From: Rhodophyticola sp. CCM32 | GTDB taxonomy: Bacteria > Pseudomonadota > Alphaproteobacteria > Rhodobacterales > Rhodobacteraceae | DNA length: 64,000 nt | Direction: 5' to 3' | Assembly: GCF_004751985.1 (NCBI RefSeq) | Contig: NZ_CP038492.1 | Location: forward strand, 558,001-622,000 | The notes under the pieces: generated by a model | Told to the model about the DNA's origin: nothing | The model's input: the letters and a program-made list of their open reading frames with translations, nothing else | Databases searched by the model: none | Shown here: piece after piece, positions 1,510-37,006 of the stretch | How positions within the stretch are numbered: position 1 is the stretch's first letter | Layout of the letters: each line of letters begins with the position of its first letter | Position numbers and translations under genes: made by a program

Positions 1510-1520
1510 ACCAGCGTTGA

Positions 1521-1625
1521 TTACAGCATGCTGCCTTAAACCTGAGACATCGCGCATCACAAATACCCTGGGAACGCGAAGCGTGGCAGGGTATTTGTGA
1601 TTCAAGTTTAAGGCAGGGTGCTTTA
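1521..1625 (-). repeat. 105-bp nested palindromic element, copy 1
   Basis: The outer arms CTGCCTTAAAC (1531-1541) and GTTTAAGGCAG (1606-1616) enclose perfect 15-bp inner arms starting ATCACAAATACC (1556-1570 and 1587-1601), with a 16-base loop between them. A nearly identical sequence lies at 36831-36935 in the opposite orientation, differing at about three bases. The size, palindromy and lack of coding capacity fit a MITE-like or REP-like element. No flanking target duplication was established. It sits directly beside an IS3-type fragment. Confidence 0.8.
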
Positions 1626-1796: not shown

Positions 1797-2145
1797 TGTA
1801 TCGGCGACATGATTCAGCGATTCAATCCTTCTGGTCAAAGCAGATAGGACAGTGTTGACGTTCAGTCTTGCGCCAAACGTGCCGGGTTGGTGGCAGTGCG
1901 ATATTTGGTTTTGCAGTTCATACAAAACCGTGGCCGGGTTCCCGGCCATATCCCTGCTTTTGCCCGATCCGATGTGACAGGGACGGCCGTCGCGGGCGGG
2001 CGGGTGTGCGAAAAGCGTATCTGATGCGAAGGCCGGCTGTCTTTGCCCGGCATTGTCGGGCAGATGACAAAGCCCCGGAAATATCTGCTCTACTGTTCCA
2101 GCAGCGGTGTGAGTGCTGCTTTGGAAGGATGAGGCGGAGGCAGAT
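1797..2145. other. Intergenic region before the TPP enzyme genes
   Basis: About 350 bases with no gene I can support. On the minus strand, roughly 1720-1870 reads as a protein-like stretch (for example ADTLWLEDRFVVEASL) without a recognisable start or family, possibly a gene remnant left by the insertion event. The 3' end holds a GGAGG ribosome binding site at 2136-2140 serving the next gene. Confidence 0.4.
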
Positions 2146-2664
2146 ATGGCGATGCCGACGGGTGAGGCCATCCTCGCCAGACTAAAGAAAAACAAGGTCA
2201 CTCATGCGGTGACTGTACCCGATTGGATTCAGATCGGATTGCATCAGGCATTAAGTGCGGATGGGGATATCGACGTGGTCCCGTTCTGCACGGAAGATGA
2301 AGCGATCACAGCCGGTGCCGGCTTGCATATCGGGGGCAAACGCCCCGTTGTCATTATCCAGAACCAGGGTCTCTATGCCGGGTTGAATGCGCTTCGGGCC
2401 ATTGGGCTTGATGCAGGGATGCCGCTGGTTCTGTTCATCGGTCAGTTCGGGCGGGAAATTGCGCATTTCACGCCAGATCCGGCGCAATCCGCGCGCCGTG
2501 TCGTGCGCATTCTTGAGCCGGTGCTGGACGCGGTTGAAGTGCCGCATTGGCGGGTCGAGGATCGCTCGGATCTGGGCGTCATCGATGCCGCCTTCGAGAC
2601 CGCTTTCCGAGACGGCTGGCCATCCGCCGTCATCTTCGGTCAGAATCTGCCGCTTGAAGCCTGA
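2146..2664 (+). CDS. TPP-dependent decarboxylase alpha (PYR-domain) subunit, sulfopyruvate/phosphonopyruvate decarboxylase-like
   Basis: A 172-residue protein matching the pyrimidine-binding half of thiamine pyrophosphate enzymes, in the split form seen in sulfopyruvate decarboxylase (ComD) and phosphonopyruvate decarboxylase. The motif TEDEAITAGAG contains the conserved glutamate that activates the cofactor, and NQGLYAGLNALRAIG matches the following helix. The ATG at 2146 follows GGAGG by five bases; the longer GTG-started frame from 2113 lacks a ribosome site. The beta subunit follows 11 bases after the stop. The substrate is likely a 2-oxo acid, perhaps a sulfonate or phosphonate. This is inferred from the family and the nearby sulfatases, not shown. 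Confidence 0.75.
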   Translation: MAMPTGEAILARLKKNKVTHAVTVPDWIQIGLHQALSADGDIDVVPFCTEDEAITAGAGLHIGGKRPVVIIQNQGLYAGLNALRAIGLDAGMPLVLFIGQFGREIAHFTPDPAQSARRVVRILEPVLDAVEVPHWRVEDRSDLGVIDAAFETAFRDGWPSAVIFGQNLPLEA

Positions 2665-2675
2665 AAGGACTGCAC

Positions 2676-3290
2676 ATGGCCGATTTCATATGCAAGGATG
2701 CTATCGCCGCAATGGCTGACCATCGCGGGTCCGGCCCGGATGAAGCGATTATCGTGGCCACGATGACCTCGATCGCGTGGATCAATCAGCTTTCGCCCAG
2801 CCCGCTGAACATCTCCTGCGTGCCGCTTATGGGTGGGGCATCGGCGCTTGGCCTTGGCATTGCCCTGGCGCAGCCGGAGCGCAAGGTTGTGGTGCTGGAC
2901 GGGGATGGCTCGCTGCTTATGCAATTGGGCAGTCTGGTTTCGATCGCGGGCGCTGCGCCGAAAAACCTGCTGCATATCGTGTTCAACAATGGTGTCTGGT
3001 TCGAGAATATGGTGAACCTGCCCCTGCCCGGGACGGGGGGTACGGAATATGCGACGCTTGCCTCGGCCTCGGGGTTTCCGAAGACATACCGGTTTGATCG
3101 TCTGCAGGATTGGGTTGAGGCATTGCCCGGGGTGTTGCAGTCGGACGGTCCGATCTTTGTTGAGCTTGTGGTCACACCGCAATCAGATGCGCTTTGGACC
3201 CATAATGCCCCGCAACCCGATCTGCCAGAGGTGCAATTCACGCGGATGGGGGATGAAGGCCGCAGAATGCGCGCGGCTTTGTCGCCCTGA
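2676..3290 (+). CDS. TPP-dependent decarboxylase beta (PP-domain) subunit, sulfopyruvate decarboxylase-like
   Basis: A 204-residue partner of the preceding gene. It carries the thiamine diphosphate/Mg binding motif starting GDGSLLMQLGS and ending at NN about 28 residues later (FNNG), and the GGASALGLGIALA segment typical of the PP domain. The two subunits together make one 2-oxo acid decarboxylase of the ComDE/phosphonopyruvate decarboxylase type. The start at 2676 follows AAAGGA. The stop lies nine bases from the convergent stop of the GMC oxidoreductase. The product would be an aldehyde, so a partner dehydrogenase is expected somewhere. The GMC enzyme next door oxidises alcohols and could belong to the same pathway, but that is inference. 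Confidence 0.75.
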   Translation: MADFICKDAIAAMADHRGSGPDEAIIVATMTSIAWINQLSPSPLNISCVPLMGGASALGLGIALAQPERKVVVLDGDGSLLMQLGSLVSIAGAAPKNLLHIVFNNGVWFENMVNLPLPGTGGTEYATLASASGFPKTYRFDRLQDWVEALPGVLQSDGPIFVELVVTPQSDALWTHNAPQPDLPEVQFTRMGDEGRRMRAALSP

Positions 3291-3299
3291 ACCGCCATA

Positions 3300-4910
3300 T
3301 TACGATTGCAATAAAACCTCTGCGGCCTTCAAGCCAACGGCCATGGACGCGGCATTGGTATTGGCCGAACACATTGTCGGAAAGACCGACGCATCGGCGA
3401 TCCGAAGGTTTTCAACACCCCGAACCTTCAGGTCCGGGCCGACAACCGCGTCAGGGTCAGTGCCCATCCGGCATGTCCCCACCGGGTGATATGAGGTCTG
3501 CGCGCTCTGCCGCACGAAATCGAGCAGGTCTTTATCCGTTTCCATCTCTGGCCCGGGGCGCATTTCCTCAACCCCGAACCGTTGCAGGGCGGGTTGCGCT
3601 GCCACATCACGGGCAATGCGGATGGCGGCCAATGTGGTTGCGACATCGTCGGGATGTGCAAGATAATTGGCGGATATCGCCGGGCTTTCCATCGGGTCGG
3701 CAGACCGGATATGGACCGAGCCGCGGGATTTCGGGCGCAGCGGAAATGTCCCGATGGAAATGCCCGGGTGATCGTCAAGCACAAGGCTTTTGGGGTCGCG
3801 TGCATCGGGGCTGGAAAGCCAGTGCAGTTGTATCTTGATATCGGGCTGGGGAAGCTCTGCCGAGCTTTTCAGAAGTGCATGGCTGATCTGGCCCGAGCAT
3901 GACATCAACCCGTTGCCCAGCAAGGCGAACCGCGCCGCCATCAGGCCCTTGCGGATCGGGTTGCGCATGATCTGGTTCAGGGTCACGGCGTCCCGGCAGC
4001 GGTAACTCAGCCTTGTGTGCAAATGATCATGGGCGTTTTCACCCACACCCGGCAGGTCATGCACCACATCAACCCCATGGGCTTTCAGCCGTGCTGCCTG
4101 ACCGATACCGGATAATTCCATGATTTGCGGTGTCTGGACAGCGCCAGCGCAGAGGATCACCTCTTTACGCGCCGCAACCGTGCAGGTCTGCCCGTGGCGG
4201 GTATAGACAACCCCGGTCGCCTGCCGCCCGTCAAAGGTGACCCGCCCCACATGCGCGCCGGTCAACATCCTCAGCTTTGGTGAGCGTTGCGCGCGTTTCA
4301 GAAACGTCTCGCGCGTGCCCTGCCGCCAGCCGCGTTTCGTGTTGAATTGAAGGTATCCGACACCTTCATACCCGCCGGCATTGTAATCGGCGGTTGCCGG
4401 AATGCCGGTTGTCACGCAGGCTTCGATAAACGCGTCCATCAGCGGCGCATGGGGGGAAAATTCGGTGATGGTGACCGGCCCATCCGTGCCGCGATGGGCC
4501 GGGTTCCCGGGTGCATATGTCTCAAGCCGCCGAAACAGCGGGGCCAGATCGTCAAACCCCCAGCCGGGCAGCCCGAATGCATCGCGCCAATGGTCAAACT
4601 CGGCAGGGTCCCCATGGACCCAGATCATGCCGTTGACCGTGGAGGACCCGCCCACCACATGCCCCCGGGGCCAGAAGATATTGCGCCGGTTCATATTCGG
4701 CTCGGGCTCGGTAAAGAAGCGGGACAGGGCCCGGTCTCCGCGTAAAAGGTAAAAGACACCAGCGGGAATACGGGTCCAGATCCAGCGGTCATCCGCCCCG
4801 GATTCCAGCAGCAGAACGCTGTACCGGCCATCCTCCACCAGGGCATCCGCCAGCGCCGCACCGCCCGAGCCAGACCCGACAATGATATAGTCATAGCTTT
4901 CGTTGCTCAT
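3300..4910 (-). CDS. GMC family oxidoreductase (choline dehydrogenase-like)
   Basis: An FAD-dependent alcohol oxidoreductase of about 536 residues. The N-terminus YDYIIVGSGSGGAALA is the Rossmann FAD motif; WPRGHVVGGSSTVNGM is GMC signature 1. The C-terminal segment SYHPVGTCRMG and the later SANTNAAS hold the catalytic His and Asn pair. The family includes choline dehydrogenase and many other alcohol dehydrogenases acting at the membrane side or cytoplasm. An ATG at 4928 is possible, but the start at 4910 (MSNESYDY) fits the family length better; neither has a strong ribosome site. It is the last gene of the minus-strand sulfatase operon, 97 bases after a choline-sulfatase-like gene, so oxidation of the released alcohol is the natural guess. 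Confidence 0.85.
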   Translation of the reverse strand: MSNESYDYIIVGSGSGGAALADALVEDGRYSVLLLESGADDRWIWTRIPAGVFYLLRGDRALSRFFTEPEPNMNRRNIFWPRGHVVGGSSTVNGMIWVHGDPAEFDHWRDAFGLPGWGFDDLAPLFRRLETYAPGNPAHRGTDGPVTITEFSPHAPLMDAFIEACVTTGIPATADYNAGGYEGVGYLQFNTKRGWRQGTRETFLKRAQRSPKLRMLTGAHVGRVTFDGRQATGVVYTRHGQTCTVAARKEVILCAGAVQTPQIMELSGIGQAARLKAHGVDVVHDLPGVGENAHDHLHTRLSYRCRDAVTLNQIMRNPIRKGLMAARFALLGNGLMSCSGQISHALLKSSAELPQPDIKIQLHWLSSPDARDPKSLVLDDHPGISIGTFPLRPKSRGSVHIRSADPMESPAISANYLAHPDDVATTLAAIRIARDVAAQPALQRFGVEEMRPGPEMETDKDLLDFVRQSAQTSYHPVGTCRMGTDPDAVVGPDLKVRGVENLRIADASVFPTMCSANTNAASMAVGLKAAEVLLQS

Positions 4911-5007
4911 CGCGTGATGCCCCGGCATGATCCCGTTTGTCCGATGAGCCTACCGGCCCGGATGCACAGCAAATGTTCCGTTTGAAACAGTTCCGGCGCC
5001 CGGCCCG

Positions 5008-6564
5008 TCAGGGTTTGAGGGCATCCTCCTCGGGCTCGAAATCATACGGCACCGGTTCGAAGACCGGAAAGCGTTGCAGCGCCTTGCGGTGAAAGGCCGC
5101 CTGTCGCCCGCGCACGTAACGATCCTTGTCGCCTTTTCGCACTTCCAGCGCCCAGGTGTCATAGCTGGGTACGGTTTCCGTCAGGTTGCGCAATAACAGC
5201 CGCCGCGCCTGGCTTTCGATACAGGCGGCCTTGACCGCATCGGGGTCCCAGTCCTGCATCAGACGGGCATGCAATTCCGCCTGAAGCTCTGCATGGTCCG
5301 GGTGACCGGCCAGATTCTGCAACTCATCGGGGTCCGCAACCACATCATAAAGCAGCGGGTCAAGCCCCCAGGTCAGCCAGTATTTGTACCGCCCCCGGCG
5401 CAGCATCCGCGAGGGGGAGGGGTATCCGCTGCCCGCATAATCCACGATCGCCTCGTCGCGCCAGCCCTCCGTGTCGCCATGGAGAAGCGGCACAAGGCTT
5501 TCGCCATCCTGACCGGTTGCAACCGGCAAATCGGCCCCGGCAAAATCAAGCAGCGTCGGCATCAGATCGACCAGAGACACCACCGCATCCGAACGCCCCG
5601 CCGCGACACCGGGCGCGGCAATGAACAGCGGCACCCGCGCTGACCATTCATAGAAGCAATCCTTCATCCACATGCCGCGTTCGCCCAGCATCTCGCCATG
5701 ATCAGAGGTGAAGATGATGACCGTGTTTTCGTCGAGCCCGGTGGCGGCCAATGCCTCCAGTATCTCGCCGACCCGGTCGTCGATATAGGACATCATTGCG
5801 TAATAGGCCCGGCGCGATGCGCGTGTACGCTCTTCATTCAGGTCGAACAGATGGGACCCCTGGGCAATATGCTTGGCCTGATCGAACGGGCCAAGCTCGT
5901 CATAGGGAACGGGCGGCACGCGCGGCATGTCGATCTCGACACCCTCATAGAGGTCCCAATGTGCCTTGTCGGCGACAAATGGCGGATGGGGCTGGGTGAA
6001 ACTGACGGTCAGCAGGAAGGGACGGTCATCCGGGTCACGGGCCAGATCATAGACCTTTCTGACCGCCTGAAACCCGACCTCTTCATCGAAATCCTGTTGC
6101 AGGTTGCGGATCGCCATACCCGCATCGGTGACATTGCGGACCCGCACCCCACCGCCCTTGCGGATCGGGTTCGACCAATCGGTCGTCCATGAGAAATCGG
6201 ATGGGTAGATATCGGTTGTCAGCCGGTCTTCATAGCCATGAAACTGGTCGGGGCCGATGAAATGCATCTTGCCGCAAAGGGTTGTGGAATAACCCGCCTG
6301 TTTCAGGTGATGCGCAAAGGTCGGATATTCGGAATGGAACTCGGCCCCGTTATCCCATTGCCGCATCGCAAAGGGCAGCCGCCCGGCATGCATCGAGGCG
6401 CGCGAGGGGGAGCAAAGCGGATAATTGCAATAGGCATTGTCGAAAACGACGCTGCGGGCCCCCAGGGCATCCAGAACCGGGGTGATCGCGGTCTGATTGC
6501 CATAGGTCGGCATTGCCTGGGGGGCCAGTTCATCGACCTGAATGATCAGGATATTCGGTTGCAT
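5008..6564 (-). CDS. Type I sulfatase, choline-sulfatase (BetC)-like
   Basis: An arylsulfatase-fold hydrolase of 518 residues that splits sulfate esters. The motif LCSPSRA near residue 51 is the C-x-P-S-R signature whose cysteine is converted to formylglycine. Metal ligands are seen at D11 (QVDE) and in TSDHGEMLGE. The C-terminal region with SQARRLLLRNL and DRYVRGRQ resembles the tail of choline-sulfatases. There is no signal peptide, so the enzyme is expected in the cytoplasm, acting on an imported ester. AAAGGA precedes the start by seven bases. It lies 15 bases downstream of an uncharacterised gene in the same operon. No formylglycine-generating enzyme gene is in the window. The exact substrate (choline-O-sulfate or another ester) is not proven. 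Confidence 0.85.
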   Translation of the reverse strand: MQPNILIIQVDELAPQAMPTYGNQTAITPVLDALGARSVVFDNAYCNYPLCSPSRASMHAGRLPFAMRQWDNGAEFHSEYPTFAHHLKQAGYSTTLCGKMHFIGPDQFHGYEDRLTTDIYPSDFSWTTDWSNPIRKGGGVRVRNVTDAGMAIRNLQQDFDEEVGFQAVRKVYDLARDPDDRPFLLTVSFTQPHPPFVADKAHWDLYEGVEIDMPRVPPVPYDELGPFDQAKHIAQGSHLFDLNEERTRASRRAYYAMMSYIDDRVGEILEALAATGLDENTVIIFTSDHGEMLGERGMWMKDCFYEWSARVPLFIAAPGVAAGRSDAVVSLVDLMPTLLDFAGADLPVATGQDGESLVPLLHGDTEGWRDEAIVDYAGSGYPSPSRMLRRGRYKYWLTWGLDPLLYDVVADPDELQNLAGHPDHAELQAELHARLMQDWDPDAVKAACIESQARRLLLRNLTETVPSYDTWALEVRKGDKDRYVRGRQAAFHRKALQRFPVFEPVPYDFEPEEDALKP

Positions 6565-6579
6565 GGGTGAATCCTTTGG

Positions 6580-7584
6580 TCAGATGTCGAGCGTGCGCGA
6601 CAGTTCGAACATATAGAATGCCCGCTCAAGAGTCGTATCGAGGGTGATATGCAGCGGTTGTGCATCAAGGCTGTCGAATTGCCCGACCCTGAGCCATCTG
6701 CCATCCCCGGCCTGAATATCGCAATGCCAGGCCCAGACCTCCTGCGCGGCCCTGGCAAAGGCCGGGTCGCGCGTGGCGGCATGCATCCATCCCAGACCCC
6801 AGGCAACCTTGCCGTTGCTGATGATCTGGTAAATGTCATCAGCGCAATTCAGGAACAGGGCATAGGCCTTGTGACCCGCATCAAGCCAGCGTTTTTCGCC
6901 GGTGGCGAGATAGAGGCTGGCACAGGCGTTCATGGCCATGCCGATATACCAGTAAACCTGCCCCGGCGTTCCGATATCAATGCTGGAAACCATGGCGAGC
7001 CCCTGTTTGCGGTCCTCGCGGATGATCTCCCCGTCCGCGTTGCGCAGCAGATAGAACTTGCCTTTCGTGCCCGTCTGTTCATCCAGCAACCCGGCGATGA
7101 AGGCACCGCCCCGGCGCGCGGCCTCGACCCGGCCCATGGCCAGAAATGCCAGAACCGCAGACCCCGTGCTGCCAAGGCAATAGACACGCTCAGCCGGAGG
7201 TTGATTGGCAAGGGTCGCAAGCCCGCCGGTCACCGGATGCATCTGGTTTTCGACCAGCCGGCCGATCTCTGCGGCCATATCGTAGCGCCCAAGCACATGC
7301 AGGCCCCGTGCGATCCAGGCCGCGCGGTAACTGGCCAGACCCTGCGCCGTCGGATCGTCGGGCAGGGTGTTGATGTCGCCGTCTTTCAGAAAGGTCCGCC
7401 CGACGAATTGCGCCAGAACACGCGCCTCGCGGATACGTGCGCCGGTTGTCATTGCCACGATGGATTTGTAGTAGCCATTGATCAGGTTTCCCGCATCGCG
7501 AAAGCCCGTATCGGGATCGACCAGCGCCGCCGCCCAGTCCAGCGCCAGATGGCCCCGCTTCAGGTAGAATTCTGATGATGTCAT
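6580..7584 (-). CDS. Uncharacterised helical protein, six-hairpin glycosidase-like fold
   Basis: A 334-residue protein I do not recognise at family level. It is rich in helical hairpins with repeating aromatic and glycine turns (for example YWYIGMAMNACASLY, AWGLGWMHAATRD), which suggests an alpha/alpha toroid as in six-hairpin glycosidases, epimerases or terpenoid cyclases. There is no signal peptide or transmembrane segment, so a cytoplasmic enzyme is likely. GGGAGG lies nine bases before the ATG. It is sandwiched between two sulfatase genes in one operon with a TctAB transporter, so it probably acts on the same imported sulfated compound or its desulfated product. Function is open. Confidence 0.7.
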   Translation of the reverse strand: MTSSEFYLKRGHLALDWAAALVDPDTGFRDAGNLINGYYKSIVAMTTGARIREARVLAQFVGRTFLKDGDINTLPDDPTAQGLASYRAAWIARGLHVLGRYDMAAEIGRLVENQMHPVTGGLATLANQPPAERVYCLGSTGSAVLAFLAMGRVEAARRGGAFIAGLLDEQTGTKGKFYLLRNADGEIIREDRKQGLAMVSSIDIGTPGQVYWYIGMAMNACASLYLATGEKRWLDAGHKAYALFLNCADDIYQIISNGKVAWGLGWMHAATRDPAFARAAQEVWAWHCDIQAGDGRWLRVGQFDSLDAQPLHITLDTTLERAFYMFELSRTLDI

Positions 7585-7699
7585 AGCGCGGCCCTCCCCG
7601 ACCCGACAGTGATGCGCATGATCCGGCGCAATCTTTCACCAGAGCTTAGCGGCGGTTCTGTCAGGCAATTGTCGACCCCGGCACATTTTACAGCTTCGT

Positions 7700-7812
7700 A
7701 CTCAAATTCCGCACCAGCCACACCACCCTTCCGCCCGGCGGCACTGCCGGGCAGCGCCCGAACCGCCCCCGTGGGGCGGGCGCTGCCCTCTGCGTTGTGC
7801 AGGTATGTTGCG
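7700..7812. repeat. GC-rich modular hairpin repeat, copy A
   Basis: A member of a five-copy family (others near 12605, 17720, 22536, 50961). It contains the GCCCGGCGG / CCGCCGGGC-type hairpin followed by a CCGCCCC-GTG-GGGGCGG hairpin and the flank CCCTCTGCG. It lacks the third module present in copies C, D and E. It lies between the second sulfatase gene and the uncharacterised gene, where it interrupts an otherwise tight operon with a 238-base gap. Confidence 0.75.
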
Positions 7813-7822
7813 GAACTTTGGC

Positions 7823-9325
7823 CTATCGCACGAAGACATCGCCGGGCAGGAAAAAGCTGTTCTTGGCCATCGAGCCACGCTCGATCAGGGTGCGGGCAGG
7901 CCGGATCGGGCGGATCTTGAAGAACGGGCGCACATAACGTGCCATCATCACCTCAATCTCATCCTCGGCCCCGCCTGAAAGCACCAGATTGCGATCTTCC
8001 AGCGGGTCCTCTTCAAGGTTGAAAAACTGCATCGCCTCGCCGGTATCCTCATAAACCACCAGTTTGAGGGTTGCTGTGCGGAACATGGCAACGCCGTAAG
8101 CCTCGCTGATCGCAACCTCCTTGGCCACGCTTTTGCCGTCGAAGGCTGGCAGCAGCGATTGAAATTGCGAACTTGGCAGATCCGCCCCGGCAATGTCGCG
8201 GAAAGTGGTGGAAATATCAGAGAGTTCGACGATCTCGTCAATTTTTCGCGGGCCGGTGCCTCCGGGCGGGCGGATGATCATCGGCACCCGCACCGAGGGA
8301 TCGTAGAACACCATCTTCTTGACCATCCGGTGTTCGCCCATCATCTCCCCATGGTCCGAGACATAGACGATCCATGTGTTGTCCAGCTGGCCTTTTTCCC
8401 GCAGCGCCTCGATGATCCGGCCCATGCTCTGGTCGATCATCATCGTGTTGGCCTGATAGGCGCGGCGGGCCTTGCGAATGGCCTCGGGCGTCATCGTATC
8501 GGTGTCGCAATAGTCCGTCAGAACCTCCAGGAAAGTGGCAAGCGGCCCGCTTTGCGGCATTTCGGGCGGCTCGAAACTGTCCGGCATGGTGATCTCGGGG
8601 GTGCCATATTCGTCAAGCGCCTCCTCGGGGGCATCCCAGGGGTCATGCGGACCGGCAAAGCAGACCTGCAGGAAAAACGGCTCTTCCCGGTCGTAATCGC
8701 GGATCCAGTCAGCGGCATAATCCCCGACCCAGACATCCTGATGCGCATGCAGGGGAAGCGGCAGCGGATCGGCATTCCAGGCTTTCGCGGCCTCCATCCC
8801 GGGGTTTTCTTCCAGCACATGTTTGTTCCGGCTGGTCAGATAGGTCCGGTACTCATCAAGCAGGCCATGTTCCTTCAGATAGTCGGTATAAAGGGAATCC
8901 ACCCTCAGGCTTGCTTCCTTGCCTGCGGTCTCGTGGGTCTCTGTAAACCCGTAGTGATGCAGGATACCAGCCTGATCATTCATATGCCCGCCGGGCCAAG
9001 GCAGGTGGGTATAGAAATGCGTCTTGCCGATCTGGGCCGTGTGGTAGCCCGCGCTTTGCAACGCCTGTGCGAAGGTCGGCACCGTGTCATGAACCCGGGC
9101 GACGTTCTGAAACACGCCGTGATCGCGCACGTAACGCTCTGACAGCATCGAGGCGCGGGACGGCATGCAAAGGGGGGCCTGGCAGAAACAGTTTTCGAAT
9201 TGCAGCCCCTCGGAGGCCAGCCAGTCCGTTGTCTTGGTCCGCGCGCAGGGATCGCCATAGGAGCCGAGCATGTCGGCCCGCTGCTGATCGGGCATCATGA
9301 ACAGGATATTTGGCTTGCGGGTCAT
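7823..9325 (-). CDS. Type I sulfatase (second in operon)
   Basis: A 500-residue sulfatase. LCMPSRAS near residue 53 is the C-x-P-S-R formylglycine site. D13 in MPDQQRAD and the pair in VSDHGEMMGEH are the expected metal ligands. The N-terminus MTRKPNILFMMPD has no signal peptide, so the enzyme should be cytoplasmic like the other sulfatase of this operon. GGAGG precedes the start by nine bases. The gene lies 27 bases after tctB, which ties it to transport. The two sulfatases differ clearly in sequence, so either two ester bonds of one compound or two related compounds may be attacked. Phosphonate monoester hydrolases share this fold and motif and cannot be excluded. Confidence 0.85.
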   Translation of the reverse strand: MTRKPNILFMMPDQQRADMLGSYGDPCARTKTTDWLASEGLQFENCFCQAPLCMPSRASMLSERYVRDHGVFQNVARVHDTVPTFAQALQSAGYHTAQIGKTHFYTHLPWPGGHMNDQAGILHHYGFTETHETAGKEASLRVDSLYTDYLKEHGLLDEYRTYLTSRNKHVLEENPGMEAAKAWNADPLPLPLHAHQDVWVGDYAADWIRDYDREEPFFLQVCFAGPHDPWDAPEEALDEYGTPEITMPDSFEPPEMPQSGPLATFLEVLTDYCDTDTMTPEAIRKARRAYQANTMMIDQSMGRIIEALREKGQLDNTWIVYVSDHGEMMGEHRMVKKMVFYDPSVRVPMIIRPPGGTGPRKIDEIVELSDISTTFRDIAGADLPSSQFQSLLPAFDGKSVAKEVAISEAYGVAMFRTATLKLVVYEDTGEAMQFFNLEEDPLEDRNLVLSGGAEDEIEVMMARYVRPFFKIRPIRPARTLIERGSMAKNSFFLPGDVFVR

Positions 9326-9352
9326 CTGTGACGCCTCCGTGTGCGGGGAAAC

Positions 9353-9844
9353 TCAGAACCAGCCATTGGCGATCATCCATCGCTGCAGGACGGTTGAGGG
9401 GAAAACGATGTTCAGCGTTTGCGACAGCACCAGATAGGTGAAACACCAGATTGCCACGGCCAGGCAGGTGCCGATGATCCACCGGCCGGTCACAACCCCG
9501 ATGAAGGTCACAAGAAAGATCGGCAGGGTGATATGGAACCCCACCAGCCAGACGCCGATACCAACCGCCAATGCAAGGCCGACATAATTCAGGCGCCGCC
9601 GGGTATAGGCCTTGCGCGCGTCTTCATCATGCCATTCCTCATCATTGGCCACGACCCCGGCAATCAGCCCATAAACCGTATGAAGCAATGCCAGCCCCAT
9701 AATCGCGATTGATGTGGCGCCCGGCATCATGCCACCGCGGCCATAATCGCCGGACACGGCATAGGTGATCGCGGCGAAGCCCAGAATGGCCACACCAATC
9801 CACCATGTGATTGAACGAAGCGCCTTTTGCCGGACAAGTGCCAT
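9353..9844 (-). CDS. Tripartite tricarboxylate transporter small permease, TctB family
   Basis: A 163-residue membrane protein with about four hydrophobic segments (for example ITWWIGVAILGFAAITYAV at the N-terminal part and two strongly hydrophobic helices near the C-terminus). It fits the small TctB subunit, and the downstream-of-tctA position with only three bases between genes supports this. TctB works with the large TctA permease and a periplasmic TctC receptor to import organic acids or other small anions by cation symport. The family is variable in sequence, so the call rests largely on topology and context. Confidence 0.8.
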   Translation of the reverse strand: MALVRQKALRSITWWIGVAILGFAAITYAVSGDYGRGGMMPGATSIAIMGLALLHTVYGLIAGVVANDEEWHDEDARKAYTRRRLNYVGLALAVGIGVWLVGFHITLPIFLVTFIGVVTGRWIIGTCLAVAIWCFTYLVLSQTLNIVFPSTVLQRWMIANGWF

Positions 9845-9847
9845 CCC

Positions 9848-11377
9848 TTAATCCTCGAAACTTTCGGCCGGTTTGACGGTGGTTTTCTGCTTGCGGAGCC
9901 GCGAGATCACGATGCTGGCGATGATCGCTGCGATCATCACTTCCATGATCATGACAATCGGTCGTTCCCACATGAACGCCACATCATAGCGCCGCGTCGT
10001 GATCCACAGGTTGTTTTCCAGCAACCCGCCCAGAACGAAGCCGATGATCAGCGGCACGCGCGGCCAGTCGGCATGTTTGAAGATATAGCCGACAACCCCG
10101 AAGGCGCCGAACAGGATGATATCGCCGATGCTGTTGGAGGCCATGGAGGCGCCGACAATCATGAAGCAGAAAATCGTCGGGGCGATGATTTCCGCCCGCA
10201 CGAAGCAGATCAGGATCAGATAACGCTGAAGCCAGAGGCAAAGGAACGCGACGATCAGATTGGCCACCACCACCGTCCAGGTCATCTGGAAGGTGATATG
10301 CAGGTTTTCAAACAGCATCGGGGGACCGGGGCGCAGGCCGACAATCAAAAGCGCCCCCATCATCACCGCCATCGACGCATTGCCGGGGATACCAAGCGCC
10401 ACGGTTGGCACGATGGCGCCGGGTTTCTGCGCGGCGGTTCCGGCTTCGGGTGCGATCACGCCCCGCACATCCCCACGCCCGAACATCGCATTGTCCCTGG
10501 CCGATTGCACAGCATGCCCATAGCTCAGCCATTCGGCCACTGTGCCGCCAAGCCCGGGGATCATCCCGGCCACGCAGCCGATAACCCCGGCCCGGAAGGT
10601 CAGCCACCGGTTGCGGATCGTGTCCTTGAACCCTTCAAGCGCCCCGGAATTGGGGTTGGAGCCTTCCGCTTTCTCGGAAATCGAGCGGCGCGACAACAGC
10701 ATGTCGATCACCTCGGGCAATGCAAAGATGCCAAGCGCAATGGGCACAATCGGAATACCCGCTTCCAGATAGGGGATATCCATCGTGAAACGGTCCTGGC
10801 TGGCGAATTCGGCATAGCCGATGGTCGACAGAAGCAGGCCAAGAAACGCGACGATCAAACCGCGCGTGACCGATGTGCCCACGAGAGAGGCGGCCAGCAT
10901 CAGCCCGAACAGGGAGGTCATGAAAAATTCCGGTGACGCGAAATTGTCGATCACCGCGCGCAGGACAGGAAGAAACAGGATGATGACGAAGACCGATACC
11001 AACGTGCCCCAGACGCTTGCGAAGTAAGATGCGCTTAACGCGCGCCCGGCCTCGCCGCGTTTTGCCATCGGATAGCCGTCAAGATAGGTCGCCTGTGCCG
11101 CCGATGTACCCGGCACCCCGATCAGAACCGCCGGGATCGCATCGGTCTGTGTGGTCACCGCATACATGCCCAACAGAAAGGCGATTGCGATTTCGGGCGG
11201 CTGGGTGATGGCGATGGGCAAAAGCAGGCTCATCCCGGTAAGCCCGCTGAGCCCGGGAATGAGGCCGAAGATCATGCCAAACGTAATGCCCAGCATCATG
11301 AACAGGAATGTCCGCCAGTGGAACAGCAGAACGAAGCCCTCGGCACTTGCGTTCAAGACATCCAGCATGCGGTGCAT
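9848..11377 (-). CDS. Tripartite tricarboxylate transporter large permease, TctA family
   Basis: A 509-residue polytopic permease. The motif GMIFGLIPGLSGLTG near the N-terminus and the repeat-like GMIPGLGGTVAEWLSYG in the second half are family marks of TctA, as is VLIGVPGTSAAQATYLDGYPMAKRGEAGRA. The open frame continues upstream to 11884, but that extension has no membrane or family character. The ATG at 11377, or 11368, after a GGGAGGG stretch is the sensible start. It is the first gene of the minus-strand operon that continues into tctB, two sulfatases, an unknown gene and a GMC oxidoreductase. Its matching TctC is probably the gene at 12946 on the other strand. Confidence 0.9.
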   Translation of the reverse strand: MHRMLDVLNASAEGFVLLFHWRTFLFMMLGITFGMIFGLIPGLSGLTGMSLLLPIAITQPPEIAIAFLLGMYAVTTQTDAIPAVLIGVPGTSAAQATYLDGYPMAKRGEAGRALSASYFASVWGTLVSVFVIILFLPVLRAVIDNFASPEFFMTSLFGLMLAASLVGTSVTRGLIVAFLGLLLSTIGYAEFASQDRFTMDIPYLEAGIPIVPIALGIFALPEVIDMLLSRRSISEKAEGSNPNSGALEGFKDTIRNRWLTFRAGVIGCVAGMIPGLGGTVAEWLSYGHAVQSARDNAMFGRGDVRGVIAPEAGTAAQKPGAIVPTVALGIPGNASMAVMMGALLIVGLRPGPPMLFENLHITFQMTWTVVVANLIVAFLCLWLQRYLILICFVRAEIIAPTIFCFMIVGASMASNSIGDIILFGAFGVVGYIFKHADWPRVPLIIGFVLGGLLENNLWITTRRYDVAFMWERPIVMIMEVMIAAIIASIVISRLRKQKTTVKPAESFED

Positions 11378-11866
11378 TTCCCTCCCGTCCACCAGCCTCT
11401 TACGGGCAACATGCTGAACGCAATGCCCAATCGTAAGATGACACCTGCCCATGGTCCGCATCGGCCTTGCTCTGTGCTCTTGCAGGGCAAGGTTTTTGAT
11501 CGCCACCTTCAGGTTTTGCCAAGCTACGCGCGCTCTGCCGGGTGAATTGTTCTCTCCCCGACAGTTCGCATGGCTCGCCGCCTCTAGCCTTGGGGCATCA
11601 CGGAAAAGCATCCCGTCATGGCAGGATTTGCGACTGATGATGGGGGACTGGTCCGCTATGGTGACGGGGGTGCCGGCAGGAATGCATGCTTTGTCGATTT
11701 TGCCCGTATAAGCAGATGTTTGGGCCCGGTTCACATCGTGCGACCGGTTTGGCGCGTTTCCGTCAATGCGTTGCGATGAAAGCAGAATACCGATAGTCCT
11801 AGGGCAGAACCGCAGACGTGGCGCTTCGGTCTCACCAACTATTTTGCGTGGCCGTTGGGGGGGAAC
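11378..11866. promoter_or_regulatory. Divergent promoter region between tctA operon and crp/fnr-type gene
   Basis: About 490 bases separate the two divergent starts and contain no gene I can support. Both the catabolic operon and its probable regulator must be transcribed from here. I looked for an FNR/CRP-type palindrome (TTGAT-N4-ATCAA or TGTGA-N6-TCACA) and found no convincing full site. Confidence 0.5.
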
Positions 11867-12589
11867 GTGCAAAAGTCCAGACATACCGTTGCGTTATTGG
11901 CGGATCGGTTGCGTATGAACCCGACGCTGGCGAAGCTGCCGGAGGCGACACTTGCAGCCATTGCCGGGCATACGCGACTGACCCGGTTCAAAGCGAATGA
12001 GCGGCTGTTCAGCCGCGGAGATGAAATTCTCCTGGCCGGTGTGATCATTCGCGGTGGCATACGCAACTCGCTTATCGGCTATGACGGGCATGAAATGTCG
12101 ATGTCGGTTCTGCGCCGCGGGGCGTTTTATGGCTGGATTGGCCTTGTCAGCCCGACGCCAAGCCCATGGGATATCTATGCCCAGGGCGAGACCGAGATTG
12201 CGTGCTTTCAGATCAGCGATTTTCGAAACCTGATGAAGCAGCATCCCGAATTGAACACGATGATTGCCGAAGCGTTGAGTGCGCGGCTTCGCAAATCATA
12301 TGACCATATGTATAATCTGGTTCTGGATACATTGGATACCCGGCTTCGCCGGACGCTTGTCATGCTGACCGGGGATCGGACGATGTTTTCATCCGGGGAC
12401 ACACCGCACATCAAAATCACCCAGGAAACTCTTGCAAGTTTTGTGCAGTGTTCGCGCCCGACTGTGAACAAACTTCTGAAAGATCTGGAAAAGGAAGGTC
12501 TGATCCGCCTGGGATATGGGGAAATCATCATCCCCGATCTCGAAGCACTATACCCGCATGCCGAGGTTGAACAATTCCATTTGCTATAG
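11867..12589 (+). CDS. Crp/Fnr family transcriptional regulator
   Basis: A 240-residue regulator. The N-terminal two thirds form a cyclic-nucleotide-binding-like beta barrel (around FSRGDEILLAGVIIRGG). A long dimer helix follows, then a C-terminal winged helix-turn-helix with the recognition region ETLASFVQCSRPTVNKLLKDLE. It lacks the N-terminal cysteine cluster of FNR and a clear cAMP-binding signature, so the ligand is unknown. The GTG at 11867 directly follows a G-rich ribosome site; TTG at 11855 is an alternative. It is divergent from the tctAB-sulfatase operon and upstream of tctC, so it most likely controls that pathway. Confidence 0.85.
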   Translation: MQKSRHTVALLADRLRMNPTLAKLPEATLAAIAGHTRLTRFKANERLFSRGDEILLAGVIIRGGIRNSLIGYDGHEMSMSVLRRGAFYGWIGLVSPTPSPWDIYAQGETEIACFQISDFRNLMKQHPELNTMIAEALSARLRKSYDHMYNLVLDTLDTRLRRTLVMLTGDRTMFSSGDTPHIKITQETLASFVQCSRPTVNKLLKDLEKEGLIRLGYGEIIIPDLEALYPHAEVEQFHLL

Positions 12590-12604
12590 GGTGAGATGGC
12601 TTCG

Positions 12605-12715
12605 GACTGAAATTCCGCACCACCCCTCACCACCATTCCGCCCGGCGGCACCGCCGGGCAGCGCCCACCCCTCGGTGCGGGCTCTGCCCTCTTTGCAATA
12701 TATGTATCACGCGGA
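12605..12715. repeat. GC-rich modular hairpin repeat, copy B
   Basis: The family hairpin GCCCGGCGG-CA-CCGCCGGGC is perfect here. The CCGCCCC hairpin module is missing, so the sequence jumps from GGGCAGCGCC to CACCCCTCGG. The conserved flank CTGAAATTCC lies at the left and GCCCTCTTTGCAATAT at the right. It lies between the regulator and tctC. The 230 bases after it, up to 12945, hold no recognised feature except the ribosome site of tctC. Confidence 0.75.
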
Positions 12716-12945
12716 ATGCCAGGCCAAGGTTTTGACCGGGGTTCGGCCAGTCTGGAAACGGCCGTTCCGGCGCGTTTGGCGCGGCTTGCGCGCGTCACCC
12801 GCTTTTACGGCAATTGTCGCCCGGTGAACAAAGCCGCTATCCTATTCGCCCTAGCCTTTCGGCCCGCAAGGGGGATGTCGGTTTGCGCCGGGTGCACAGT
12901 TTTACTCAGGGGCGCATGCCGGTTCGGTAAAAGGGAGGAAGAGAT

Positions 12946-14037
12946 ATGATGGAGAAAATGACTGTCACACGTCGCATGGCACTGGCTGGCGGGGTGTTTG
13001 CATTCGGGCTTGGCCTTTCCGGTATGGTGATCGCGCAAGAGGTCAGCTTTGAGGGTGAGACCATCGACATTATGGTGAATTTCGCAGCCGGTGGCGGGAC
13101 CGATACCGCCGCAAGGCTGGTCGCACCTTTCGTTGCGCGCCATCTGCCCGGCACACCGGATGTGATCGTGACAAACCGCGCGGGCGCCGGTGGTACGGCC
13201 GCTGTGGAATATCTGATCGACTCGGTTCCGCCCGATGGCCTGCATATCGGCTATTTCGCCGGCACGCCGATCCGCTGGGCGCTGGGGTTGCAACAGGTTC
13301 CCGAAGGCTCCGGCGATCTGCCCTTTGTTGCGGCGCGCAGCGTGAACCAGATCTTCCAGGTACGGACCGATGTGGGGCTGACGGCAGAGACGTTCCACAA
13401 TTACGATGGCCCGTTGTTCATTGCGGTCAACAGCCCTGACAACCATGTCTCGATCCGTGCGCGGCTTCTGGCGGATGCGATGGGTGCGGATGAATTTGAG
13501 CTGATCACCGGTTACCGGGGGCAGGGGAACATGGTGGCCGCCGCCCGCGCGCAGGAAACCGAACTGGCCCAGACCAATGATTCCTTTTTCGGCGCCAACC
13601 GCGAGGCAATCACCGGTGATGGCGTGTTGGAGGCCTTTGGGCAAATGGGGGAATATGTGGATGGTGAAATCGTGGCCCAGACCGGGCTGGAGGATATCGC
13701 CATTTTCGACCAGATGTGGCGGGACTATTCCCCAGATACGCTCGACACCCCCGCGTATCAGGCATGGGAGGCGATCCATATCGCCATGTCGATCCAGAAT
13801 GTGTTCGTTCTGCCGCCCAATACGCCCGAGGCATATATTCCGGTTTGGGAAGAGGCGGTTCTTGCCGCCTATTCTGATCCGGATTATCTGGCCCAACTGG
13901 ATACTGCCGGAGTGCCCAGGCCCACGGCCGTCGGGACCGATGCCGTGCTGGACCGTATGAATGTCTTGCGCGGGGTGTTCCAGGATGATGCCGTTCGCGG
14001 CGCCGTAGAGGCGGCGATTGCACGCAATAACGAATAA
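12946..14037 (+). CDS. Tripartite tricarboxylate transporter substrate-binding protein, TctC (Bug) family
   Basis: A 363-residue periplasmic binding protein. The N-terminus has basic residues, a hydrophobic core and an AQE cleavage region, a Sec-type signal, after a GGGAGGAAGA ribosome site. The segments VNFAAGGGTDTAARLVAPFV and VTNRAGAGGTAAVEYL are the classic Bug/TctC signatures near the ligand pocket. It is somewhat longer than the usual 320 residues. With TctA and TctB encoded on the opposite strand across the regulator gene, it would complete one high-affinity importer. The ligand is unknown but is plausibly the sulfated compound handled by the operon. Confidence 0.85.
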   Translation: MMEKMTVTRRMALAGGVFAFGLGLSGMVIAQEVSFEGETIDIMVNFAAGGGTDTAARLVAPFVARHLPGTPDVIVTNRAGAGGTAAVEYLIDSVPPDGLHIGYFAGTPIRWALGLQQVPEGSGDLPFVAARSVNQIFQVRTDVGLTAETFHNYDGPLFIAVNSPDNHVSIRARLLADAMGADEFELITGYRGQGNMVAAARAQETELAQTNDSFFGANREAITGDGVLEAFGQMGEYVDGEIVAQTGLEDIAIFDQMWRDYSPDTLDTPAYQAWEAIHIAMSIQNVFVLPPNTPEAYIPVWEEAVLAAYSDPDYLAQLDTAGVPRPTAVGTDAVLDRMNVLRGVFQDDAVRGAVEAAIARNNE

Positions 14038-14143: not shown

Positions 14144-16390
14144 TCAGTCGGCGCCGCGCACCGGCAACACTGCATCTGCGGAAGGTTTGAAAATTTTCTG
14201 GATGAAGAAGATTGCCGTGGCTGCGGCGACCCCGATAAGGTCAGAAATCCACCCGCCTTCGATCATGAACAGGGCGGCGAGGATCAATGCGACGCGCAGG
14301 AACCATGCAGCGCGGCCCCCCATGAACCATCCCTGCACCCCCGATGAAAGCAGGAAGACGCCGAAGGTTGCGGTTATGCCGGCGCGGGTGATTTCGAACC
14401 AGCTGCCCTCCATCAGGATGGCGGAGTTATAGAAGAACATGAACGGCACGATGAAGGCGGCGATGCCGATCTTGAAACTGGCGACCGAGGTTTCCATCGG
14501 GTTGGCCCCGGATATGCCTGCGGCGGCATAGCTGGCCAGCGCCACGGGTGGCGTGATGGCCGAGACCACGGCGAAATAGAAGACGAAGAAATGCGCGGTC
14601 AGCATCGGGATGCCAAGCTGCACCAGGCCCGGTGCCACAACCGAGGCGGCGACCGCATAGGCGGCTGTGGTGGGCATGCCCATCCCCAGAAGGATGGCAA
14701 TGCACATGGCGAAGATCAGGGCAAGCAGTTGATTGGCATCCGCGATGCTCAGCAGCACAGAAGAAAACCGCGCGCCGACACCGGTCAGGCTGATCACGCC
14801 GACAATGATCCCCGCGCAGGCGCAGACCGCGATGATCTGGATCGACATATAACCCGCAATCTCGAAAGCCTTGGAGACGGATTTCACCCCCATGCGATAG
14901 GGTGTGAACCAGCTGACCACAGCCGCAGCGGCCGTGGCCAATGTGCCCGCGCGGATGACGGAATAGCCCATGAAAAGCGCCACGATCAGGATCAGGATCG
15001 GCAGAAACAGGAAGACGCGGCGCACCATGTCACGGAATTTCGGCAATTCATCCTCACGCATGCCGCGCATGCCAAGTTTCGCAGCCTCGAAATCGACCAT
15101 GAAATAGATTGAAACGAAGTAGAGGATTGCCGGGATGATCGCGGCAATCGCGATATCCGTGTAGGGGATGCCGGTGATCTCGGCCATGATGAAGGCCCCG
15201 GCGCCCATGATCGGTGGCATGATCTGCCCGCCTGTCGATGCCGCCGCCTCAACCGCGCCAGCGGTCTTTCGGTGATAGCCGACCTTTTTCATCAGCGGGA
15301 TCGTCAGGGAACCTGTGGCCACCACATTGCCCGCGCTGGTGCCGTTGATCATCCCCATAAGCCCCGAGGCGAAGATTGCCACCTTGGCCGGGCCGCCCCG
15401 GGCGCGCCCGGCGGTGGCGAAGGCGAAATTCACGAAATAATCACCGACTTTCGAGGCCTGAAGGAAGGCCGCGAAGATGATGAAGAGGATGATATAGGTC
15501 GAAGACACCGCCGTGGTCGGGCCCAGAATGCCCGCATCGGTATAGACCTGGCTGAAAAAGCGGGTCCAGGCGATGTCAGGGGCATTCAGAAAGCCGGGCA
15601 GCAGGTCGCCGGTGAAGACATAGGTCAGAAAGACACCTGCGATGATGATCAGGGCAAGCCCCGCAACGCGGCGGGTCAGTTCCATGATCAGGGCGGTGCC
15701 CGCCACGGCAGCCAGGCTGAGGCCGATCGGTGCAAAGGGCGTGCCCGTCGAGGTCCGCATGGCGGTCCCCAGAATGGTGATCAGATAGATCGCAACGCCG
15801 ATACCGCACAGTGCCAGCACCACATCGGGGGCGGCAAACCCGCCCCGGTCGCGGCGATGCACCCAGCCCAGGATAATGCCGCCCGCGGTCGCCGCCAGCA
15901 ATGGCACACCAAAGTGATATATCTCCCGCATGCGGATCGTGTCATCAATTCCGTTCCACATCACACCGCCTGCAATGTCATTGGCAAAGCCAAGGGCGGT
16001 ATAGATGGCGTAGAGTGCCGGAAGCATCAGGACATAGGCGATATAGCCGAAAACCGGGGTTTCGGGCCGCTCCTCGGACCCCCGAAAACTGGTCGCGGAA
16101 TATAGCAGAAAGCCAAGCGCCAGCGCGCCTGCAATATGGACGATGCGGAAATTCCAGGTTTCCATCGGGAAGGTGGGCAGGAAGGGCAGGTCAAGGCCGG
16201 TCCAGCCGTTGATGGACCAGCCATTCAGGGCCGCCATGTGAAACAGGGCGTAACACCCGGAAAAGACCGCAATGGCCAGATAGGCGCGCCCGGTAAACAG
16301 ACGCCGGTTGCTTTCAACCGGTTCCTCGTCAATCCCTTCTGCAATAACAGGGCCGTCGGTCAGGTGATCAGGTTGGGTATCGGTTGCCAT
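14144..16390 (-). CDS. TRAP transporter fused permease (DctQM type, TAXI-associated, 4TM/12TM)
   Basis: A 748-residue multi-pass membrane protein combining the small (DctQ) and large (DctM) permease parts of a TRAP transporter, as is usual for systems with a TAXI binding protein. The segment IFASGLMGMINGTSAGNVVATG and the later AAASTGGQIMPPIMGAGAFIMAE are hallmarks of the 4TM/12TM family. The binding-protein gene lies 125 bases upstream on the same strand. TRAP systems use ion gradients, not ATP, to import organic acids or amino acids; TAXI members often take glutamate or dicarboxylates, but the ligand here is unknown. Confidence 0.92.
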   Translation of the reverse strand: MATDTQPDHLTDGPVIAEGIDEEPVESNRRLFTGRAYLAIAVFSGCYALFHMAALNGWSINGWTGLDLPFLPTFPMETWNFRIVHIAGALALGFLLYSATSFRGSEERPETPVFGYIAYVLMLPALYAIYTALGFANDIAGGVMWNGIDDTIRMREIYHFGVPLLAATAGGIILGWVHRRDRGGFAAPDVVLALCGIGVAIYLITILGTAMRTSTGTPFAPIGLSLAAVAGTALIMELTRRVAGLALIIIAGVFLTYVFTGDLLPGFLNAPDIAWTRFFSQVYTDAGILGPTTAVSSTYIILFIIFAAFLQASKVGDYFVNFAFATAGRARGGPAKVAIFASGLMGMINGTSAGNVVATGSLTIPLMKKVGYHRKTAGAVEAAASTGGQIMPPIMGAGAFIMAEITGIPYTDIAIAAIIPAILYFVSIYFMVDFEAAKLGMRGMREDELPKFRDMVRRVFLFLPILILIVALFMGYSVIRAGTLATAAAAVVSWFTPYRMGVKSVSKAFEIAGYMSIQIIAVCACAGIIVGVISLTGVGARFSSVLLSIADANQLLALIFAMCIAILLGMGMPTTAAYAVAASVVAPGLVQLGIPMLTAHFFVFYFAVVSAITPPVALASYAAAGISGANPMETSVASFKIGIAAFIVPFMFFYNSAILMEGSWFEITRAGITATFGVFLLSSGVQGWFMGGRAAWFLRVALILAALFMIEGGWISDLIGVAAATAIFFIQKIFKPSADAVLPVRGAD

Positions 16391-16515
16391 GTGCTGCCCC
16401 TGGCTACCTCAACAGGCCCGCGTCTGGCGCGGGGTTGAGGCTGAAAGTATAAATATATCCGTAGATGGGTTCGGAGGCCACACCCATGGCATGGCCCCCT
16501 TGTGTCATCGACCGC

Positions 16516-36830: not shown

Positions 36831-36935
36831 TAAAGCACCCTGCCTTAAACTTGAATCACAAATACCCTGCCACGCTTCGCGTTCCCGGGACATTTGTGAT
36901 GCGCGATGTCTCAGGTTTAAGGCAGCATGCTGTAA
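36831..36935 (+). repeat. 105-bp nested palindromic element, copy 2
   Basis: The reverse-complement counterpart of the element at 1521-1625, with outer arms CTGCCTTAAAC and GTTTAAGGCAG and inner arms around CACAAATACCCTG. It differs from copy 1 at about three bases (GGGACATTTG where copy 1 reads GGGTATTTG), which slightly damages the inner stem. It lies between the VOC gene and an SDR gene. Confidence 0.8.
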
Positions 36936-37006
36936 TGTCAGGGTGTGACGGTCAAAGCCGTCTGACGGCTGATCCTTTTCAGCATTTGGCCCTTCGCCGA
37001 ACCGGG

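What the first reader, a model, noticed from the sequence alone, without database searches (positions are those of the whole stretch)
3300..14037. Six-gene sulfatase-TTT operon with divergent regulator: possible import and cytoplasmic desulfation pathway
Seen in the sequence: tctA-tctB-sulfatase-unknown-sulfatase-GMC oxidoreductase, all on the minus strand with mostly short gaps, and a Crp/Fnr regulator and TctC on the other side. Both sulfatases have C-x-P-S-R and no signal peptide. Known: tripartite tricarboxylate transporters import organic anions; choline-sulfatases are cytoplasmic. Inference: a sulfated compound is imported intact, then desulfated inside and oxidised. Sulfatases paired with a TTT system rather than an ABC or TonB system would be unusual.
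Basis: partly seen in the sequence, partly recalled or inferred. Interest (0 to 1): 0.75.

Follow-up and report, generated by a model that had tools for sequence, protein, structure and literature searches.

The report
Sulfatase operon with carboxylate importer
A bacterium carries a conserved gene set that probably imports a charged sulfate ester through a carboxylate transporter and removes its sulfate inside the cell; one enzyme named choline sulfatase by database models has lost its choline pocket, and the 'unknown' gene is a relative of an antibiotic-making sugar enzyme.

The parts
3300..4928 (-). GMC (FAD) oxidoreductase, choline-dehydrogenase-like, predicted cytoplasmic
   Evidence: PF00732/PF05199; below choline dehydrogenase cut-offs, 525 of 605 and 458 of 732 bits; closest solved relative 9lq0 'oxygen-dependent choline dehydrogenase'; after sulfatase 1 in L019, L020, L021 and, past one inserted gene, L022
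5008..6564 (-). Sulfatase 1: class I (formylglycine) sulfatase of the choline-sulfatase family without the choline clamp
   Evidence: TIGR03417 549 bits, cut-off 433; solved choline sulfatase 6fny E 7.6e-123; catalytic residues kept, WYHN hairpin absent
6133..6168 (-). Loop PIRKGGGVRVRN of sulfatase 1 (residues 133-144) in place of the choline-binding hairpin
   Evidence: Alignment with 6fny
6400..6414 (-). CSPSR formylglycine motif of sulfatase 1 (C51)
   Evidence: Sequence; aligned with Cys54 of choline sulfatase
6580..7584 (-).
7585..7822 (.). 238-bp gap with a copy of a dispersed intergenic repeat containing GCCCGGCGGCACTGCCGGGC
7823..9325 (-). Sulfatase 2: class I sulfatase, substrate unknown, CMPSR motif at 9155-9169
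   Evidence: PF00884 167 bits; 224 bits to TIGR03417, under its cut-off; homolog beside the AprG-like gene in L019-L025, seven of eight loci
9353..9844 (-). TctB, small membrane subunit of the TTT transporter
   Evidence: PF07331 36.2 bits, cut-off 29.1
9848..11368 (-). TctA, large membrane subunit of the TTT transporter (start corrected from 11884)
   Evidence: PF01970 399 bits; start by comparison with L019/L021
11855..12589 (+). Crp/Fnr-family regulator, divergent
   Evidence: PF00027 and PF13545; homologs near the cluster in L019 and L021-L025
12946..14037 (+). TctC-type periplasmic binding protein, divergent subfamily with a signal-peptide-like start
   Evidence: Weak PF03401; 47 homologs, several carrying PF03401; profile vs solved TctC/Bug proteins 1.3e-12

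Best explanation
A catabolic unit for a sulfate ester that carries at least one further negative charge (a carboxylate or second sulfate), most likely a small sulfated sugar acid or polyol acid. Inferred: TctC binds it in the periplasm and TctAB imports it intact. Inferred from family and lack of signal peptides: sulfatases 2 and 1, activated by the genome's FGE-family enzyme, remove the sulfates in the cytoplasm. Sulfatase 1 works like choline sulfatase on an alkyl-type ester, but reads an anionic neighbour group through its basic RKGGG(V/I)R loop instead of choline. Inferred: the AprG-like enzyme isomerises or (retro-)aldol-cleaves the freed open-chain carbonyl compound. The GMC enzyme oxidises an alcohol to an aldehyde, and an aldehyde dehydrogenase, linked in two relatives but unlinked here, finishes to an acid. 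The Crp/Fnr regulator controls the unit. Shown by computation only: gene content, conserved order, lost choline clamp, AprG homology, recurrence of sulfatase-TTT pairs.
For: Order TctA-TctB-Sul2-AprG-like-Sul1-GMC kept in L019, L021, L022. ALDH just before tctA in L021 and L022. FGE-family genes (PF03781) in the L019 and L022 stretches and one in this genome. Two further sulfatase-TTT loci in the same genome (L027, L028), and a TctB-TctA-sulfatase-TctC run in L041. 7 of 49 TctA within 6 kb of a sulfatase where 1.2 are expected. Clamp loss in all seven loop-type sequences first aligned, window included and one a fragment, with catalytic residues kept. Among choline-sulfatase-like genes compared, those with the HN hairpin (WYHN, YYHN or WFHN) lie by a choline-binding-protein gene in 8 of 11 and by a detected TTT/TRAP gene in 0 of 11; clamp-less ones lie by TTT/TRAP genes in 9 of 12. 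A review has a TTT system for galactarate/glucarate in its table and names sulfolactate uptake (passages of PMC5812351).
Against: No transport, binding or activity data. The 9-of-12 count is not independent: five of the nine were found through the cluster itself or a TctA search, L034/L091 are near copies with TctC genes only (orphan TctC genes are common in betaproteobacteria, PMC5812351), and two are in one cluster (L092). In most relatives the pairing is absent: 0 of 34 TctA in eleven of the 13 genomes counted; 3 of 40 in the one-per-genome sample. One of the four paired TctA of G059 has a TGA inside its frame. Three Rhodospirillales loci keep the AprG-like gene, sulfatase 2 and a regulator homolog with no TTT gene found; a sulfatase 1 homolog is further off in two of them. 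L026 keeps GMC, AprG-like and ALDH with no homolog of either sulfatase found. The ALDH scores under its best model's cut-off (588 of 646 bits), and its best relative in this genome is 50% identical and unlinked. The 238-bp repeat-bearing gap may split the transcript.
Confidence: 0.55

Rival explanations
1. The TTT imports an ordinary carboxylate and the sulfatases act on a compound that enters by another route; the genes are co-regulated as parts of one broader diet, not one linear pathway.
For: Rhodospirillales loci keep sulfatase 2, AprG-like and regulator without a TTT gene found; L025 has the start of a peptide-type binding protein after sulfatase 1. L026 has an MFS-like transporter instead.
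Against: TctA, TctB and sulfatase 2 are back to back with 3- and 27-bp gaps here, and their order is kept in L019, L021 and L022; four other TctA loci have a same-strand sulfatase 165-919 bp away.
Confidence: 0.22
2. The two 'sulfatases' are phosphodiesterases or phosphonate monoester hydrolases of the same fold, so the substrate is an organophosphate.
For: Phosphonate monoester hydrolases share the formylglycine and the aligned active-site residues (passages of PMC5870055).
Against: Sulfatase 1 scores 414 bits against choline sulfatase 6fny and 107-114 against the chains named or known as phosphonate monoester hydrolases; sulfatase 2 scores 169 bits against 7oz8 and 89-101 against those chains. 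FGE linkage does not discriminate.
Confidence: 0.12
3. It is a choline-O-sulfate route: sulfatase 1 is BetC, GMC is BetA.
For: TIGR03417 above cut-off, the only such hit in the genome; GMC is choline-dehydrogenase-like.
Against: W142, W143, Y144, H145, N146, E386 and L499/D500 of choline sulfatase are not kept; GMC is below both choline-dehydrogenase cut-offs; two WYHN-type genes score 822 and 882 bits against 549 here.
Confidence: 0.06

Closest known systems
Choline sulfatase BetC/ChoS of Sinorhizobium meliloti (PDB 6fny, 7pth) with the bet pathway
   Same: Fold family, formylglycine nucleophile, metal and sulfate-binding residues, full-length alignment; sulfatase next to a GMC dehydrogenase and, in two relatives, an aldehyde dehydrogenase in the cluster, as in BetC-BetB-BetA (Phaeobacter bet genes in passages of PMC10132767)
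   Different: Choline clamp and Glu386 absent; basic loop in their place; TTT instead of a choline transporter; second sulfatase and AprG-like protein added
TTT transporters for sulfolactate and galactarate/glucarate
   Same: Secondary carboxylate importers of the same family, one of them for a sulfur-bearing carboxylate (review PMC5812351, passages)
   Different: Those substrates are a sulfonate and sugar acids; the word sulfatase does not occur in that review's main text
AprG transaldolase of apramycin biosynthesis (PDB 9lfq, 9c95)
   Same: Whole-length fold and 23-24% identity; Y39, K40, Y86, G258, K259 shared
   Different: AprG comes from Streptoalloteichus antibiotic biosynthesis; this one sits in an apparently catabolic operon; activity untested
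AGE-fold sugar isomerases such as YihS sulfoquinovose isomerase
   Different: About 10% identity; ranks far below AprG

Membership tests
Choline sulfatase (TIGR03417 / BetC) | Score above the curated cut-off | tested here: met
   549 bits, cut-off 433.45
Choline sulfatase (TIGR03417 / BetC) | Choline clamp Trp129 + His145 in a GW-X13-WYHN hairpin (PMC9063841) | tested here: not met
   Trp129 kept, WYHN replaced by GGGVR. In 131 aligned sequences, chosen as nearest to the window protein plus 11, position 145 is V, I or H in 92, 36 and 3
Choline sulfatase (TIGR03417 / BetC) | Glu386 and C-terminal gate Leu499/Asp500 | tested here: not met
   S at 386, A and F at 499/500 in the window protein
Choline sulfatase (TIGR03417 / BetC) | Hydrolyses choline-O-sulfate | not testable with these tools
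   Needs purified enzyme
Class I (formylglycine) sulfatase | C-x-P-S-R motif plus metal and sulfate-binding residues | tested here: met
   D14, C54, R58, N75, K102, H201, H297, K309 columns kept in sulfatase 1; for sulfatase 2 only the CMPSR motif and Pfam were looked at
Class I (formylglycine) sulfatase | A formylglycine-generating enzyme in the same cell | tested here: met
   One PF03781 protein in the genome, 239 bits
TTT transporter | TctA, TctB and TctC all present | tested here: met
   PF01970, PF07331; TctC by profile vs solved TctC/Bug proteins, below the Pfam cut-off on its own
TTT transporter | Transport of a carboxylate | not testable with these tools
   Needs binding or uptake assay
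AprG family | Sequence profile and whole-length fold match | tested here: met
AprG family | Transaldolase activity | not testable with these tools
   Only residue conservation seen
Choline dehydrogenase (BetA) | Score above NCBIfam cut-off | tested here: not met
   458 of 732 (TIGR01810) and 525 of 605 (NF002550)

The most novel reading that the evidence does not exclude
A TTT-fed pathway for O-sulfated sugar acids, in which import, cytoplasmic double desulfation and C-C cleavage or isomerisation by an AprG-family enzyme form one unit. AprG-type chemistry would then be part of primary catabolism and not only of antibiotic making, and 'choline sulfatase' genes without the WYHN clamp would mark a large set of unrecognised sulfate-ester pathways.
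Probability: 0.3. Interest if true: 0.78.

Novelty: new variant of a known kind. Interest (0 to 1): 0.6.

Why it matters
If true, some bacteria take up sulfate esters whole through a transporter class known for carboxylates and free the sulfate inside the cell, so this flux would be missed when sulfatases are assumed to act outside. The clamp test gives a simple sequence rule to separate true choline sulfatases from paralogs that pass NCBI's model. The AprG link gives a named starting point for a protein family without a Pfam match of its own.

Tried and rejected
TctC structure prediction had pLDDT 52.6 from four sequences and was not searched. Scans for promoters and terminators found little more than shuffles (5 against a mean of 4.4; 12 against 9.9). 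A plasmid search with the AprG-like protein found nothing. A search of 394 genomes of the family found it in 2, this genome and one other, at E 1e-10 or better. A search for L019's DUF3604 protein in this genome found nothing, without a positive control. Literature on AprG: two searches gave no paper on its mechanism (one search listed 10 of 26). Literature on sulfatase with TTT: searches listed no paper whose title or abstract start joins the two; one search listed 10 of 153. Of the seven papers I read passages of two, which do not join them, and did not open the other five. This is an absence in that open library only. The reading of sulfatase 1 as a plain choline sulfatase was rejected on the clamp residues. 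The reading that pairing is general in the family was rejected: 0 of 34 in eleven genomes.

Full report
What is there. Pfam supports GMC, both sulfatases, TctB, TctA and the Crp/Fnr regulator above cut-off; TctC falls below its cut-off but its family profile hits solved TctC/Bug proteins, best E 1.3e-12. The likely tctA start is at 11368, not 11884. The window is bases 558001-622000 of a single-contig genome of 3.86 Mb.

Is it a unit? One pattern-based scan of the genome collection (84,980 species) with the profile of the 'unknown' protein gave eight loci. TctA-TctB-sulfatase 2-unknown-sulfatase 1-GMC stand in this order in L019 (83-93% identity), L021 and L022 (60-82%, TctB 51-56%); L020 has the last four before its contig ends; L023-L025 keep a regulator homolog, the unknown and sulfatase 2, and L024 and L025 also hold a sulfatase 1 homolog further along; L026 keeps GMC and the unknown with an aldehyde dehydrogenase. 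An aldehyde dehydrogenase, nearest to succinate-semialdehyde dehydrogenase but under that cut-off, stands before tctA in L021 and L022. L022 has one membrane protein gene between sulfatase 1 and GMC. A DUF3604 protein is in L019, L021, L023 and L025. FGE-family genes are in the L019 and L022 stretches. The longest-contig lengths 18196 and 16645 recur for homologs of the unknown, sulfatase 1 and TctC, which suggests but does not prove linkage there too.

Sulfatase 1. It passes the choline-sulfatase model and is the only match of the genome above that cut-off. The solved enzyme holds choline between Trp129 and His145 of a GW-X13-WYHN hairpin (PMC9063841, abstract and passages), and Glu386 takes part in recognition (PMC5870055, abstract and passages). 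In sulfatase 1 and its loop-type relatives Trp129 and Tyr123 stay, the hairpin becomes RKGGG(V/I)R, and Glu386 and the C-terminal gate are not kept, while the catalytic residues are (one relative is a fragment). In an alignment of 131 sequences (the 120 listed, nearest homologs of 7277 hits, plus 11) the WYHN string is in two, the solved enzyme and a Nitratireductor gene beside a choline-binding-protein gene; the catalytic residues are kept in the rows printed, about half, apart from one fragment. The ten homologs scored all pass the model: eight clamp-less at 546-623 bits, two WYHN at 822 and 882 bits. So the model's cut-off covers proteins without the choline clamp.

Clamp type and neighbours. 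In the loci compared, HN-hairpin genes lie by a choline-binding-protein gene in 8 of 11 and by a detected TTT or TRAP gene in 0 of 11. Clamp-less genes lie by TTT or TRAP genes in 9 of 12 (window, L019, L021, L022, L034, L048, L091, two in L092); the other three are L024, L025 and the Azospirillum gene L033, which lies by a taurine ABC transporter. In L034 and L091 only TctC genes were seen. L024 does hold a TRAP gene, but more than 10 kb from sulfatase 1, so it was not counted. L020 was left out because its contig ends. These rows are related and partly chosen by the search, so this is a lead, not a test.

Recurrence of sulfatase-TTT pairs. This genome has five TctA loci. Three have a sulfatase match within 1 kb: the window; L027, TctC-TctB-TctA-GntR-sulfatase with a second, divergent sulfatase; and L028, TctC-TctB-TctA-sulfatase (in L027 and L028 the TctB, TctC and regulator names are read by eye). 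In 13 genomes of the family, 7 of 49 TctA have a sulfatase within 6 kb (1.2 expected) and 6 of 49 within 3 kb (0.7 expected); all are in this genome (3 of 5, the window's own included) and G059 (4 of 10 within 6 kb), and 0 of 34 in the other eleven. In a separate sample of one TctA from each of 40 genomes, 3 had a sulfatase within about 6 kb (one of them is also a G059 pair); one, L041, has TctB-TctA-sulfatase-TctC in a row on one strand. So the pairing is real, patchy and uncommon.

How it probably works. Sulfate esters with a second charge suit a TTT binding protein and a basic loop in sulfatase 1. Without signal peptides the enzymes should act in the cytoplasm. Two sulfatases, an AprG-like sugar enzyme, an alcohol-oxidising GMC enzyme and an aldehyde dehydrogenase in relatives make a small sulfated sugar acid or polyol acid the most likely substrate. 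The transporter, enzyme and substrate steps are all inferred.

Known or new. Each part belongs to a known family. The combination, the clamp-less choline-sulfatase type with a TTT, and an AprG relative in a catabolic-looking operon were not met in the listings nor in the passages read; of the papers opened I saw only passages, some of them from abstracts, and the library is open-access only.

Noticed in passing
G000:C1:196000-215000 (L027) 6564-13284: A second sulfatase-TTT locus: TctC-TctB-TctA-GntR-sulfatase with a divergent second sulfatase (TctB, TctC and GntR by eye).
   Followed up: partly
G000:C1:2386000-2405000 (L028) 8022-12507: A third sulfatase-TTT operon: TctC-TctB-TctA-sulfatase with divergent LacI-like regulators (TctB, TctC and regulators by eye).
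   Followed up: partly
window 2113-3290: Two TPP-enzyme halves resembling sulfopyruvate/phosphonopyruvate decarboxylase (below cut-off), convergent with GMC; among L019-L026 the same pair was found in L019 only.
   Followed up: partly
window 14144-17499: A large fused TRAP-type membrane protein and a TAXI-type binding protein directly beyond tctC, read by eye from the sequence.
   Followed up: no
window 7689, 12596, 17712, 22528, 50931: Five copies of a dispersed intergenic repeat with a GC-rich inverted repeat, two of them inside the finding.
   Followed up: partly
window 1520-1625 and 36831-36936: A 106-nt inverted pair, 97% complementary, 35 kb apart.
   Followed up: no
L034 3995-12137: Cupriavidus cluster: PF03601 membrane protein, GMC (by eye), clamp-less choline-sulfatase-like gene, TPR protein and TctC on one strand; PF03601 holds putative sulfate exporters (recalled).
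   Followed up: partly
L092 7842-18334: GMC-ALDH-sulfatase-regulator-TRAP-TAXI-sulfatase run in another genome of the family (regulator by eye): a TRAP counterpart of this unit.
   Followed up: partly
L033 5279-10434: Azospirillum gene named betC sits between taurine ABC transporter genes and a taurine dioxygenase and has WSHH in place of WYHN.
   Followed up: no
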